Assembly: GCF_030252345.1 (NCBI RefSeq) | Contig: NZ_CP126980.1 | Span: forward strand, 3,797,501 to 3,861,500 | Direction: 5' to 3' | Length of the DNA: 64,000 nucleotides | From: Actinoplanes oblitus | GTDB taxonomy: Bacteria > Actinomycetota > Actinomycetes > Mycobacteriales > Micromonosporaceae | In this document: one piece after another, positions 55,122-60,327 of the stretch | Layout of the letters: the number at the start of each line of letters is the position of its first letter | Numbering within the stretch: the first letter of the stretch is position 1 | Made by a program: the position numbers and the translations under genes | The notes under the pieces: model-generated | What the model saw: the letters and a program-made list of their open reading frames with translations, nothing else | Databases searched by the model: none | Told to the model about the DNA's origin: nothing

Positions 55122-55139
55122 ATGGAGCACGCCCGGTGA
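55122..55139 (+). CDS. Five-codon mini-ORF coupled to the NRPS start
   Basis: GAGGTGGAG precedes an ATG that reads M-E-H-A-R then TGA; the TGA overlaps the NRPS GTG (GTGA at 55136-55139). The NRPS GTG itself has no close ribosome site, so ribosomes may reach it by reinitiation. Prediction only. Confidence 0.3.
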   Translation: MEHAR

Positions 55140-58100
55140 CGGTGACGACCGACGAGCAACTGTTCGCGTTCCCCGCGATCACCGAGGGCCCGGTCCTGCC
55201 GGCGGTGTTCCGCTCGGCGTCCGCGCCGGCCCGCCGCACGCTGGTCGACATCCTGGACGCGACGGTGCGGGCCCACCCGGACAGCGACGCGATCGACACC
55301 GGCGCTGTCCAGCTGACCTATCGGGAGCTGGCCGCCGAGGTCGACGCCCTGCGGACGACCCTGCACGAGCACGGGATCGGCGCCGGTGACCGGGTCGGTG
55401 TCCGGGTCTCCTCCGGCACCGCCGAGCTGTACCTGGCGATTCTCGGCGTGCTGGCGGCCGGCGCCGCCTACGTCCCGGTGGACGCGGACGATCCGGAGGA
55501 GCGCGCCGAGCTGGTCTTCGGCGAGGCCGCCGTCTGCGCGGTCATCGGCGACGGGCTGAGCGTGACGCCGCGCGGCACCCCGGGCGGCCGCCCCGGCCGG
55601 CCCGGACCGGCCGACGACGCCTGGATCATCTTCACCTCCGGTTCCACCGGCACACCGAAAGGCGTCGCCGTCTCGCACGGCTCGGCCGCCGCGTTCGTCG
55701 ACGCCGAGGCGCAGCTGTTCCTGGTCGGCGAGGACACCGCCGGGCTCGGCCCGGGGGACCGGGTGCTGGCCGGGCTGTCGGTCGCGTTCGACGCGTCCTG
55801 CGAGGAGATGTGGCTCGCCTGGCGCTACGGCGCCTGCCTGGTGCCGGCCGCCCGCTCGCTGGTGCGCAGCGGTGTCGACCTGGGCCCGTGGCTGACCGAG
55901 CAGCGGATCACCGTGGTGTCCACGGTGCCGACGCTCGCCGCGCTCTGGCCGGTCGAGGCGCTCGACGAGGTCCGGCTGCTGATCTTCGGTGGCGAGGCCT
56001 GCCCGCCGGAGCTGGCCGAGCGACTCGCCGTCGAGGGCCGCGAGGTGTGGAACACCTACGGGCCCACCGAGGCGACGGTGGTGGCCTGCGGCGCGCGGAT
56101 GACCGGCGAGGGGCCGGTCCGGATCGGGCTGCCGCTGGCCGGCTGGGAGCTGGCGGTAATCGACGCGGCCGGCGATCCGGTCGCCATGGGCGAGTCCGGC
56201 GAGCTGGTGATCGGCGGCGTCGGCCTGGCGCGCTACCTGGACGCCGCCAAGGACGCCGAGAAGTTCGCGCCGCTGCCGTCGATGGGCTGGCAGCGGGCGT
56301 ACCGCAGCGGCGACATCGTGCGCGCCGAGCCGGCCGGGCTGCTGTTCCTGGGCCGCGGCGACGAGCAGGTCAAACTCGGCGGGCGCCGGATCGAGCTGGG
56401 CGAGGTGGACGCCGCGCTGCAGGCCCTGCCCGGGGTGGCCGGTGCGGCCGCCGCGGTGAAACGGACCGCCGCCGGCACCCAGCTGCTGGTCGGCTACGTG
56501 GTGCCGCGCGAGGGGTTCGACGCCGCCGCGGCTGCGCTGCGGATCCGCGAGCAGCTGCCGGCCGCGCTGGTCCCGCTGCTGGCCGAGGTGGCGTCGCTGC
56601 CCACGCGTACCTCGGGGAAGGTGGACCGGGCCGCGCTGCCGTGGCCGCTGGCCACCGGCGGTTCGGACGACGAGCTGACCGCCACCCAGCAGTGGCTCGC
56701 CGGCGGGTGGGAGCAGGTCCTCGGGATCCGCCCGTCCGCGCCGGACGCCGATTTCTTCAGCAGCGGTGGCAGCAGCCTGGGCGCCGCCCAGCTGGTCGCC
56801 TGGATCCGGGCGAAGCACCCGCGGGTCTCGGTCGCCGACGTCTACCAGCACCCGGTGCTGTCCGACATGGCGGCGGTCATCGATGCGCTGGACACCTCCA
56901 CGGCGGTGCGCCGCGAGGTCCGGCCCACGCCCCGGCGGACCGGGCTGTTCCAGGCCCTGCTGATGCTGCCGATGCTGGCGCTGGTCGGCCTGCGCTGGAT
57001 CACCGTGCTCGCGGCGCTGGGCAACCTGCTGGTGCCGTGGGCGCCGCGGGTCTCCTGGTGGTGGATCGCGGCCGGCGGGGTGCTGCTGTTCAGCCCGCCC
57101 GGCCGGATCGCGGTGGCCGCCGCCGGAGCCCGGCTGCTGCTGCGCGGCGTCGGCCCGGGCGACTATCCCCGCGGCGGCGGTGTGCACCTGCGGCTCTGGG
57201 CGGCCGAGCGGCTGGCCGAGCTGACCGGCGCGACCGGCGTCGCCGGGGCCGGCTGGATGATCACGTACGCGAAGGCGCTCGGCGCGCAGATCGGCAAGGA
57301 CGTCGACCTGCACTCCGCGCCGCCGGTCACCGGCCTGCTGAAACTCGGCCGCGGCGCCGCCGTCGAACCCGAGGTCGACCTGTCCGGCCACTGGGTCGAC
57401 GGCGACGTCGTCCGGGTCGGCAAGCTGCGCGTCGGCGCCGGCAGCCGGATCGGCTCGCGCAGCACGCTGATGCCCGGCGCCCGGGTCGGCAAGGGCGCGG
57501 ACATCGCCGCCGGGTCGACCGTCACCGGCGCGGTGCCGGCCGGCCAGCGCTGGGCCGGTTCTCCGGCCGCGCCGGCCGCCAAGGGCACCGCCGGCTGGCC
57601 GGCCCAGCGTCCCGAGCACCGGGCCAAGATCTGGGTGGCCGGGTACAGCCTGACCGCCCAGCTGCTCGGCGTGATCCCGGTGGTGGCGGTGCTGCCCGCC
57701 GTCGCGCTGCTGGCCCGGCAGTCCACCCCCGGCGCCGCGCTGCTCCTGGTCCCGGCCGCCGCGGTGGCCTACTTCCTGACGTACGCCCTGCTCATCCTGG
57801 CGTCGGTCCGCCTGCTCGGCCTCGGCGTGCGAGCCGGCTTCCACCCGGTCCGCAGCCGGGTCGCCTGGCAGGTCTGGACCACCGAGCGGCTGATGGGGAT
57901 GGCCCGGTTCGCGCTGTTCCCGCTCTACGCCAGCCTGTTCACGCCGGTGTGGCTGCGGCTGCTGGGCGCCAAGGTGGGCCGCAACGTGGAGGCGTCGACG
58001 GTGCTGGCGCTGCCGGTGATGACCACCGTCGACGACGGCGCGTTCCTGGCCGACGACACCATGGTCGCCAGTTACGAGCTGCGCCACGGCTGGCTGCGGG

Positions 58101-58984
58101 TCGCCCCGGCCCGGATCGGCAAGCAGGCGTTCCTCGGCAACTCCGGGATGGCCGCGCCCGGCCGCTCGGTGCCCAAGCGGGGCCTGGTCGGTGTGCTGTC
58201 GTCGGCGCCGCGCAAGGCGAAGAAGGGCACGTCGTGGCTGGGCGCCCCGCCGATGCCGCTGCGCCGCACCGTCGAGGCGGCCGACGCCAGCCGCACCTAC
58301 CAGCCGCCGCTGCGGCTCAAGCTGGCCCGCGCCGCCATCGAACTGTGCCGGATCGTCCCGGTGATGCTCGCCGGCGGCCTCGCCGTCCTGGTCCTCGCCG
58401 CCCTCGCCCGGATCTGGGCGGCGGCCGGCGCGGTCGCCGCCGCGCTGGCCGCCGGACCGGTGCTGCTGGCCGCCGCGATCTCCGGCGCGCTCGTCGCTAC
58501 TGCCGCGAAATGGCTGCTGGTGGGCCGGTTCCGGGTCACCGAGCGGGCACTGTGGACGTCGTTCGTCTGGCGCAACGAGCTGGCCGACACGTTCGTCGAG
58601 GTGCTCGCCGCCCCGTGGCTGTTCCGGTTCGCCACCGGCACACCCCTGCTCAACCTGTGGCTGCGCACGCTCGGCGCGAGGATCGGCCGGGGCGCCTGGC
58701 TGGAGACGTTCTGGCTGCCGGAGTACGACCTGGTGCGGCTCGGCCCGGGCGCCACCGTCAACCGGGGGTGCGTGGTGCAGACCCACCTGTTCCATGATCG
58801 GATCATGAGCATGGACGAGGTGACTCTGGGCGCGGGCGCGACGCTCGGCCCGCACGGCATCGTGCTGCCCGGCGCGAGCATCGGCGCGCGTACCACGGTG
58901 GGCCCCGGCTCGCTGGTCACCCGCGGCGACGCGGTGCCCGCCGACAGCCGCTGGCTGGGCAACCCGATCGCGAACTGGGCATGA
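55136..58984 (+). CDS. Pls/PosA-family single-module membrane NRPS (polylysine synthetase-like)
   Basis: About 1282 aa. Domain order as in epsilon-poly-L-lysine synthetase: adenylation domain (45-500) with TSGSTGTPKGVAVSH, NTYGPTEATVV, GRGDEQVKLGGRRIELGEVD and PTRTSGKVDRAALP; carrier domain with phosphopantetheine Ser 547 in SSGGSSLGAAQL; then a C-terminal half with several membrane helices alternating with three left-handed beta-helix-like domains (GAQIGKDVDLHSAP, GAKVGRNVEAS, GARIGRGAWLETF). The membrane part catalyses iterative isopeptide bond formation in Pls. The A4 region FDASCEEMWLAW has Glu where hydrophobic-substrate domains have Trp, which may suit a cationic amino acid (inference). 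ATGA overlap with the peptidase gene. Product unknown. Confidence 0.93.
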   Translation: MTVTTDEQLFAFPAITEGPVLPAVFRSASAPARRTLVDILDATVRAHPDSDAIDTGAVQLTYRELAAEVDALRTTLHEHGIGAGDRVGVRVSSGTAELYLAILGVLAAGAAYVPVDADDPEERAELVFGEAAVCAVIGDGLSVTPRGTPGGRPGRPGPADDAWIIFTSGSTGTPKGVAVSHGSAAAFVDAEAQLFLVGEDTAGLGPGDRVLAGLSVAFDASCEEMWLAWRYGACLVPAARSLVRSGVDLGPWLTEQRITVVSTVPTLAALWPVEALDEVRLLIFGGEACPPELAERLAVEGREVWNTYGPTEATVVACGARMTGEGPVRIGLPLAGWELAVIDAAGDPVAMGESGELVIGGVGLARYLDAAKDAEKFAPLPSMGWQRAYRSGDIVRAEPAGLLFLGRGDEQVKLGGRRIELGEVDAALQALPGVAGAAAAVKRTAAGTQLLVGYVVPREGFDAAAAALRIREQLPAALVPLLAEVASLPTRTSGKVDRAALPWPLATGGSDDELTATQQWLAGGWEQVLGIRPSAPDADFFSSGGSSLGAAQLVAWIRAKHPRVSVADVYQHPVLSDMAAVIDALDTSTAVRREVRPTPRRTGLFQALLMLPMLALVGLRWITVLAALGNLLVPWAPRVSWWWIAAGGVLLFSPPGRIAVAAAGARLLLRGVGPGDYPRGGGVHLRLWAAERLAELTGATGVAGAGWMITYAKALGAQIGKDVDLHSAPPVTGLLKLGRGAAVEPEVDLSGHWVDGDVVRVGKLRVGAGSRIGSRSTLMPGARVGKGADIAAGSTVTGAVPAGQRWAGSPAAPAAKGTAGWPAQRPEHRAKIWVAGYSLTAQLLGVIPVVAVLPAVALLARQSTPGAALLLVPAAAVAYFLTYALLILASVRLLGLGVRAGFHPVRSRVAWQVWTTERLMGMARFALFPLYASLFTPVWLRLLGAKVGRNVEASTVLALPVMTTVDDGAFLADDTMVASYELRHGWLRVAPARIGKQAFLGNSGMAAPGRSVPKRGLVGVLSSAPRKAKKGTSWLGAPPMPLRRTVEAADASRTYQPPLRLKLARAAIELCRIVPVMLAGGLAVLVLAALARIWAAAGAVAAALAAGPVLLAAAISGALVATAAKWLLVGRFRVTERALWTSFVWRNELADTFVEVLAAPWLFRFATGTPLLNLWLRTLGARIGRGAWLETFWLPEYDLVRLGPGATVNRGCVVQTHLFHDRIMSMDEVTLGAGATLGPHGIVLPGASIGARTTVGPGSLVTRGDAVPADSRWLGNPIANWA

Positions 58985-60327
58985 CCCCAGGCGCCGGGCC
59001 GCTCGGCGCCACACCCGGCGCCGAGCACTCGACAGACCCGTACCTGCCCGCGCACGGCAACGGCGGGTACCGCGTGCTGCACTACGACCTCGACCTCGAC
59101 TACCGGATCACCACGAACCGGCTGGCCGGGAAGGCGACCATCACCGCCCGGGCCGTCCAGTCGCTGTCCCGGTTCAGCCTCGACCTGGGCGCCTTCCGGG
59201 TGCAGGACGTCCGGGTCGACGGCCAGCCGGCCAAGTTCCTGCACCGGCCCGGCAAGCTGCGGATCAAACCGGACCGGCCGATCGGTTACGGCGCCACTTT
59301 CAAGATCGAGATTCGGTACGCCGGCACCCCGGTACCCATCTCGGGCCGGTGGGGCGACATCGGCTGGGACGAGCTCACCGACGGCGCGCTGGTGGCCAGC
59401 CAGCCGAACGGCGCGTCGTCCTGGTTCCCGTGCAACGACCGGCCCGCCGACAAGGCCACCTTCCTGGTCACGCTGACCGCCGCGGCGCCGTACACCGTGC
59501 TGGTCACCGGCGACCTGGTCTCCCGGCGACGCCGCGCCGCCACCCAGACCTGGGTGTACGAGCGCAACGAGCCCACCTCGCCGTACCTGATGGGTGTGCA
59601 GATCGGCCGCTACGAGCTGGTCGATCTGGCGGTGGGCGGGGTGCCGCAGCGTGCCGCGATCCCGCCCCGGCTGCGGACCGTGCTCGGGCACGACTTCGGG
59701 CGGCACGGCGACATCATGGCCGCCCTGGAGGGCCTGTTCGGCCCGTACCCGTTCCGCGAGTACGTGGTGGTGGTCGCCGACGACGACCTGGACGACCCGA
59801 TCGAGGCGCAGGGCATGGCGGTCTTCGGCCGCAACCACCTCGACGGGCAGCGCACCCACGAGCGGCTGGTCGCCCACGAGTTGGCCCACCAGTGGTTCGG
59901 CAACAGCCTGACGGTCGCCGACTGGCGGCACATCTGGCTCAACGAGGGCTTCGCGACGTACGCCGAATGGTTGTGGTCTGCGGTCTCCGGCGGTCCGACG
60001 GCGGACGCGCACGCCGCGCACTGGCACGCCCGGCTCGCGGCGCAGCCGGCCACCATCAGCATCGCGAACCCGGGCGTGGCCCGGATGTTCGACCCGATCG
60101 TCTACAAGCGTGGCGCGCTGACGCTGCACGCCCTGCGCACCCGGATCGGCGATGCGGCGTTCTTCGCCATGGTGCGCACCTGGGTCGCCGAGCATCAGCA
60201 CGCCACCGTCACCACCGAGGAGTTCCGGGCGCACGCCAGGCGGTTCGCCACCAGGCCCGTCGACGATCTGCTCGACGCGTGGCTGGACCGCCCGGCGCTG
60301 CCCCGGTTGCCGGTTTTCGGTCTCTGA
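58981..60327 (+). CDS. M1 family metallopeptidase
   Basis: About 448 aa. Zinc aminopeptidase-type fold: N-terminal beta domain (YRVLHYDLDLDYRITTNRLA, SSWFPCNDRPADKATFLVTL), zinc motif H299-E-L-A-H303 in VAHELAHQWFGNSLT and E322 in WLNEGFATYAEW, 19 residues after H303. The usual GAMEN substrate loop is QGMAVFG here, as in related actinobacterial proteins. No signal peptide. The start overlaps the NRPS stop (ATGA), so the two are made together; it could trim, degrade or protect against the polymer, as peptidases are known for poly-lysine producers. That role is inferred. Confidence 0.92.
   Translation: MTPGAGPLGATPGAEHSTDPYLPAHGNGGYRVLHYDLDLDYRITTNRLAGKATITARAVQSLSRFSLDLGAFRVQDVRVDGQPAKFLHRPGKLRIKPDRPIGYGATFKIEIRYAGTPVPISGRWGDIGWDELTDGALVASQPNGASSWFPCNDRPADKATFLVTLTAAAPYTVLVTGDLVSRRRRAATQTWVYERNEPTSPYLMGVQIGRYELVDLAVGGVPQRAAIPPRLRTVLGHDFGRHGDIMAALEGLFGPYPFREYVVVVADDDLDDPIEAQGMAVFGRNHLDGQRTHERLVAHELAHQWFGNSLTVADWRHIWLNEGFATYAEWLWSAVSGGPTADAHAAHWHARLAAQPATISIANPGVARMFDPIVYKRGALTLHALRTRIGDAAFFAMVRTWVAEHQHATVTTEEFRAHARRFATRPVDDLLDAWLDRPALPRLPVFGL

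What the first reader, a model, noticed from the sequence alone, without database searches (positions are those of the whole stretch)
55122..60327. Pls/PosA-type membrane NRPS coupled to an M1 peptidase: probable cationic homopolymer locus
The 1282-aa protein has the adenylation, carrier and three-part membrane C-terminal layout of epsilon-poly-L-lysine synthetase. Seen in sequence: all A-domain core motifs, carrier Ser 547, three beta-helix-like blocks between membrane helices, and an ATGA junction to a zinc peptidase. Known: enzymes of this type make isopeptide-linked poly-amino acids, and producers carry degrading aminopeptidases. Inference: this strain makes a poly-cationic amino acid polymer and the peptidase handles processing or self-protection. 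The A4 block Glu at the position that is Trp in PheA may point to a basic substrate.
Basis: partly seen in the sequence, partly recalled or inferred. Interest (0 to 1): 0.8.

Follow-up and report, generated by a model that had tools for sequence, protein, structure and literature searches.

The report
Polylysine synthetase with paired peptidase
This soil bacterium carries a two-gene unit that very probably makes the antimicrobial chain poly-lysine and a peptidase that trims or destroys it; the pairing is already known from Streptomyces, so the locus is a well-preserved member of a known kind.

Summary
A 1282-aa A-T-membrane NRPS (55136-58984) overlaps a 448-aa M1 zinc peptidase (58981-60327) by ATGA. 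It exceeds the cut-off of TIGR02353, the Pls/PosA family (708 bits against 423). Its ten-residue code, DAESIGTVVK, equals that of the solved S. albulus epsilon-poly-L-lysine synthetase A domain (7WEW), and it lies in that code's clade. The predicted substrate is lysine. AlphaFold shows three helix-pair/beta-helix repeats (pLDDT 92.5). In 104 loci from 200 Micromonosporaceae genomes, 60 of 61 lysine-type synthetases have the M1 gene placed directly downstream; in the 61st it is present but was not placed. None of 43 other family members shows it, though four of these hold under 1 kb downstream. In the window's genus 63 of 67 genomes carry a family member over the cut-off. A pls-peptidase operon and its peptidase PldII are published (PMC8117764, PMC9223678), so this is a new member of a known kind. 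One difference: eight Streptomyces partners carry a twin-arginine-like leader, while the window's peptidase has none and should be cytosolic. Polymer production is untested.

The parts
55136..58984 (+). epsilon-poly-L-lysine synthetase-type NRPS, 1282 aa, GTG start (second possible GTG start at 55142)
55229..56644 (+). adenylation domain; code D219 A220 E223 S262 I283 G285 T307 V315 V316 K495 = DAESIGTVVK, identical to 7WEW
56690..56881 (+). carrier (PP-binding) domain with Ser547
56948..58969 (+). TIGR02353 C-terminal polymerisation domain
56939..57139 (+). first predicted membrane helix pair
57290..57586 (+). first left-handed beta-helix block
57629..57820 (+). second predicted membrane helix pair
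57968..58270 (+). second left-handed beta-helix block
58310..58519 (+). third predicted membrane helix pair
58676..58981 (+). third left-handed beta-helix block
58981..60327 (+). M1 zinc peptidase, 448 aa, PldII-like partner without a leader
59875..59946 (+). HExxH-x18-E zinc site (His299 to Glu322)
58981..58984 (+). ATGA overlap of synthetase stop and peptidase start

Best explanation
The two genes form an epsilon-poly-L-lysine unit. The A domain activates L-lysine as Lys-AMP and loads it on carrier Ser547. The membrane-embedded pseudo-threefold beta-helix domain then joins lysyl units through the epsilon-amino group into a short cationic chain. The translationally coupled M1 peptidase, made in step with the synthetase, hydrolyses this polymer. 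Because it has no leader, it most likely acts on chains inside the cell, for self-protection, length control or recycling. Shown here: anatomy, lysine code, clade, co-conservation and an intact zinc site. Inferred: product, linkage, place and role of the peptidase.
For: TIGR02353 at 708 bits against a cut-off of 423. A domain matches 7WEW over residues 21-506 at 682 bits. Ten of ten code residues are identical, including the five residues that contact lysine in Pls according to the review PMC11253843 (passages). The lysine-code enzymes form one side of a branch, 54 of 54 sampled rows, SH-aLRT 100, with the window inside. No residue conserved at 98% or more is lost. The C-terminal model has pLDDT 92.5 and pTM 0.91, matching the layout described for PosA in PMC10522769. 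The M1 gene is placed downstream in 60 of 61 lysine-type loci and in 0 of 43 other loci of the family. Partner M1s form one side of a branch, 49 of 49 rows, apart from the six other M1 homologues of this genome that were put in the tree. Pls and M1 distances correlate at r = 0.957 in 127 pairs. A C. variabile relative with the same kind of operon made epsilon-PL when its synthetase gene was expressed in S. coelicolor (PMC8117764, Results read).
Against: No product is known from this strain, and no Actinoplanes producer appeared in the paper listings. C. variabile itself made no detectable epsilon-PL (PMC8117764), so a silent locus is possible. The code-M1 association sits on one clade, so it is close to a single evolutionary event (the presence of M1 needs at least 4 changes on the 71-row tree), and the distance correlation partly reflects species phylogeny. 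Four of the 43 other loci hold under 1 kb downstream and could hide an M1 gene. PldII is reported outside the membrane, whereas this partner lacks a leader. Of 79 lysine-code loci in the named set 11 show no M1: four end too soon to tell, seven hold 2.3-5.5 kb downstream without one, so the peptidase is not indispensable.
Confidence: 0.85

Rival explanations
1. A cationic homopolymer synthetase for another diamino acid (ornithine, diaminobutyrate, diaminopropionate or beta-lysine).
For: The C-terminal domain is shared by all such enzymes, and A-domain codes are imperfect predictors (general knowledge).
Against: Codes differ: PosA DMEHNGTVSK and epsilon-poly-beta-lysine DGESISVVNK (PMC10522769). 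DFE codes, with the Phe reported for PDAP synthetase, form a separate branch in the tree, and none of the 37 read has the M1 partner. Window and 7WEW agree at 10 of 10 positions.
Confidence: 0.06
2. The peptidase is an unrelated housekeeping aminopeptidase that merely lies in the operon.
For: M1 enzymes are broad, and this genome holds at least six other M1 homologues in long open frames. The partner has no leader, unlike eight Streptomyces partners.
Against: The partner is a separate clade that travels with lysine-code synthetases across many actinobacterial families, with a 4-nt overlap in 100 of 127 pairs, while ClpC and the SnoaL-like gene beside the window's pair were found next to only two relatives.
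Confidence: 0.08
3. The locus is intact but silent, or makes a polymer kept at the cell envelope with a structural rather than antimicrobial role. (This overlaps the best explanation: same enzyme, other role, so the odds do not add to one.)
For: 63 of 67 genomes of the genus carry a family member over the cut-off, more than in the family (94 of 200) or the class sample (42 of 197). C. variabile carries a functional gene but showed no product (PMC8117764).
Against: No expression or localisation data. Wide presence within one genus may be plain vertical inheritance.
Confidence: 0.25

Closest known systems
Pls, epsilon-poly-L-lysine synthetase of Streptomyces albulus (A domain 7WEW)
   Same: Domain order, lysine code, lysine-contact residues, C-terminal layout, coupled downstream peptidase
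   Different: In the tree the window lies in the large branch outside the S. albulus-like group (55-58% identity to the Streptomyces proteins L005-L013 of that group). It is 1282 aa long.
PldII, epsilon-PL-degrading peptidase of S. albulus, coupled to pls
   Same: M1 family, zinc motif, same place behind the synthetase, one clade with the partners of S. albulus-like loci (43-47% identity)
   Different: No twin-arginine-like leader, hence predicted cytosolic, whereas PldII is reported outside the membrane (PMC9223678)
Corynebacterium variabile pls-peptidase operon (PMC8117764)
   Same: Pls homologue with a peptidase in one operon; product confirmed as epsilon-PL by heterologous expression
   Different: Sequence not compared here. 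A different genus; no product seen in the native host.
PosA, delta-poly-L-ornithine synthetase of Acinetobacter baumannii
   Same: Same A-T-membrane family; Glu that binds the terminal amine
   Different: Code differs at 4 of 10 positions (M/A, H/S, N/I, S/V)

Membership tests
epsilon-poly-L-lysine synthetase (Pls) | A domain, carrier domain and TIGR02353 terminal domain in one chain | tested here: met
epsilon-poly-L-lysine synthetase (Pls) | Lysine-specific pocket identical to Pls (DAESIGTVVK; contacts D, E, S, T, K) | tested here: met
epsilon-poly-L-lysine synthetase (Pls) | Six membrane helices in three pairs with three beta-helix blocks | tested here: met
   (AlphaFold model); hydropathy alone shows all three regions, the first pair only weakly resolved
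epsilon-poly-L-lysine synthetase (Pls) | Falls in the clade of lysine-code synthetases | tested here: met
epsilon-poly-L-lysine synthetase (Pls) | Makes epsilon-poly-L-lysine | not testable with these tools
   needs assay
PosA (delta-poly-L-ornithine synthetase) | Ornithine pocket DMEHNGTVSK | tested here: not met
PldII (epsilon-PL-degrading peptidase) | M1 peptidase with HExxH-x18-E | tested here: met
PldII (epsilon-PL-degrading peptidase) | Coupled directly behind pls and in one clade with the partners of S. albulus-like pls | tested here: met
   S. albulus PldII itself was not in hand, its stand-in was the partner in L005, whose A domain is 93% identical to 7WEW and whose M1 is 89% identical to an S. 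noursei M1
PldII (epsilon-PL-degrading peptidase) | Located outside the membrane (leader) | tested here: not met
   no leader-like N-terminus by a crude test; so filed as PldII-like, not as PldII
PldII (epsilon-PL-degrading peptidase) | Degrades epsilon-PL | not testable with these tools
   needs assay

The most novel reading that the evidence does not exclude
Outside the S. albulus group, epsilon-polylysine is not mainly a secreted antibiotic. It would be a core, nearly genus-wide polymer of Actinoplanes, made at the membrane and turned over inside the cell by a coupled leaderless peptidase, perhaps serving the envelope or sporangium matrix.
Probability: 0.15. Interest if true: 0.55.

Novelty: new member of a known kind. 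Interest (0 to 1): 0.3.

Why it matters
It gives a concrete, testable prediction (epsilon-polylysine from Actinoplanes) and a rule of use for genome mining: in the Micromonosporaceae loci examined, the lysine code and the coupled M1 peptidase occur together and the other codes occur without it. The leader difference raises an open question about where the peptidase meets the polymer, and so whether it protects the cell, sets chain length or recycles lysine.

Tried and rejected

Limits: the hydropathy/RR test for leaders is crude and is not a signal-peptide predictor; it raised one false alarm (L090, no hydrophobic stretch behind the RR). Three doubly fetched loci (L085, L097, L098) and the window's own locus were left out of the count. 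Loci whose code could not be read are L027, L116 and L161. The 104 loci are 101 of the 102 over-cut-off places listed (all but the window's own) plus three below the cut-off (L127, L133, L191). One class-level protein search failed, so the class figure rests on the family model alone and no codes were read there.

Full report
What is there. The window encodes on the + strand a 1282-aa protein (55136-58984, GTG) and a 448-aa protein (58981-60327) whose start overlaps the first gene's stop as ATGA. The first has an AMP-binding domain, a carrier domain and the TIGR02353 terminal domain (708 bits, curated cut-off 423). The second is an M1 peptidase (Peptidase_M1 104 bits and Peptidase_M1_N 51 bits, both over their cut-offs). 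The given start, 55122, is not in frame; it is the ATG of a five-codon ORF that overlaps the real start. In the whole genome (one contig, 9.8 Mb) this is the only TIGR02353 match over the cut-off.

Substrate. The A domain aligns over residues 21-506 with chain 7WEW, the S. albulus Pls A domain, at 682 bits. Mapping the ten specificity positions gives DAESIGTVVK for both; the positions were set by matching motifs to the PheA code from memory. The positions D219, E223, S262, T307 and K495 correspond to the Pls residues D213, E217, S256, T301 and K495 that a review lists as lysine contacts (PMC11253843, passages seen); the one-residue chain offset is my own reading. In PosA the equivalent Asp and Glu are essential, and lysine-activating members have an Ala at the second position (PMC10522769; Introduction, Results parts 2 and 3 and the C-terminal section read). 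The PosA code differs at four positions.

Phylogeny. In a tree of 71 full-length or near full-length proteins, the 54 rows with a DAE code form one side of a branch (SH-aLRT 100), as do DFE (12), DGE (2) and DSECYGGVTK (2); the window sits among Actinoplanes relatives. This is a quick search with LG+G4, and the program warns of long branches that meet between classes, so the order of the classes is unsure; the grouping of the lysine-code rows has full support. In 136 lysine-code sequences (135 relatives, some held twice, and the window's own copy), 126 C-terminal positions are at least 98% conserved, and the window departs from no such position over its whole length.

The peptidase partner. 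In 104 loci from 200 Micromonosporaceae genomes, 59 of 60 DAE-code synthetases have the M1 gene placed directly downstream. The 60th, L095, has the M1 in an overlapping frame, but its synthetase frame runs past the usual stop and the script could not place it. L161, of lysine type by overall similarity but with its A domain outside the frame read, also has it. Of the other 43 loci (37 DFE, 2 DGE, 2 DSECYGGVTK, 1 DGAAVSVVHR, and L116, read as DFE) none has an M1 hit anywhere in the stretch held; four of them (L116, L117, L126, L186) hold under 1 kb downstream, so 39 are a fair test. In 80 named loci, 68 DAE loci and L027 have it and 11 DAE loci do not. Of the 11, four (L007, L048, L050, L058) end at or within about 0.6 kb of the synthetase; the other seven (L011, L014, L015, L019, L033, L051, L064) hold 2.3-5.5 kb downstream without an M1 hit. 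Overlaps of four bases were found in 100 of 127 pairs. All 130 partner sequences, the window's included, keep HExxH-x18-E. Partner M1s form one side of a branch (49 of 49 rows, support 100/100) against six M1 homologues of the same genome. Synthetase and peptidase distances correlate at r = 0.957 over 127 pairs, none of 999 permutations reaching this; shared species history contributes to this figure. All lysine-code enzymes are one clade, so the association is close to a single event and should not be read as many independent ones; within the 71-row tree the presence of M1 needs at least four changes.

What is known. S. albulus PldII is described as the main epsilon-PL-degrading enzyme, translationally coupled to pls and located outside the membrane (PMC9223678, passages). 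C. [quoted passage not shown] coelicolor under the S. albulus pls promoter, though not in C. variabile itself (PMC8117764, Results read). The wide spread of the family is also published (PMC10522769). The present locus is therefore a new member of a known kind.

What may be new. First, distribution: over-cut-off TIGR02353 matches occur in 63 of 67 genomes of the window's genus, the window's own included (one of them, G406, in pieces), in 94 of 200 of the family and in 42 of 197 of the class. Codes were read only for loci of the 200-genome draw, so not all 63 are shown to be lysine type. Second, the leader: eight Streptomyces partners (L005, L006, L008, L009, L010, L012, L013, L022) begin with a twin-arginine-like hydrophobic leader, while three other Streptomyces partners (L032, L039, L041) and the window's peptidase do not; the window's begins MTPGAGPLGATPGAEHSTDPYLP and has no hydrophobic stretch. 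The rest of the 129 partners show no such leader by the same crude test, L090 being a false alarm. This suggests that in most of these actinobacteria the peptidase meets the polymer inside the cell. I found no statement of this in the listings and passages, which cover open-licence PMC papers only.

Control. The typing agrees with published context in one other class: the DGESVSVVNK synthetase of a same-genus genome (L124) overlaps a lysine-2,3-aminomutase-like radical SAM gene (the match is below the curated cut-offs of the aminomutase models), as expected for the epsilon-poly-beta-lysine type described in PMC10522769.

Verdict. Interest is modest because the system is known; the leaderless peptidase and the near genus-wide presence are the parts worth a bench test.

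Noticed in passing
L124:504-6070: A same-genus genome has a second synthetase with code DGESVSVVNK, close to the epsilon-poly-beta-lysine code, overlapping a KamA/lysine-2,3-aminomutase-like gene that scores below the curated cut-offs.
   Followed up: partly
L127:1983-6038 and L191:2853-7109: Two Micromonosporaceae synthetases carry the code DSECYGGVTK, the same as the Bdellovibrionales enzyme that shows modest activity with arginine (PMC10522769); product unknown. A mycosin-like subtilase lies beside the one in L191.
   Followed up: partly
L133:2348-6175: Synthetase with code DGAAVSVVHR lacks both the Glu and the Lys of the pocket: degenerate, misaligned, or activating something else.
   Followed up: no
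window 55122-55139: Five-codon ORF ATG GAG CAC GCC CGG TGA ends on the GTGA start of the synthetase; possible translational coupling of a leader ORF.
   Followed up: no
L117, L118, L166, L169-L177 and others: Synthetases with DFEC codes and open frames of 1404-1960 aa recur in Micromonosporaceae (18 loci read), without an M1 partner.
   Followed up: no
L014, L015, L019, L033, L064, L051, L011: Lysine-code synthetases, four of them from Kitasatospora, without a visible M1 partner downstream.
   Followed up: partly
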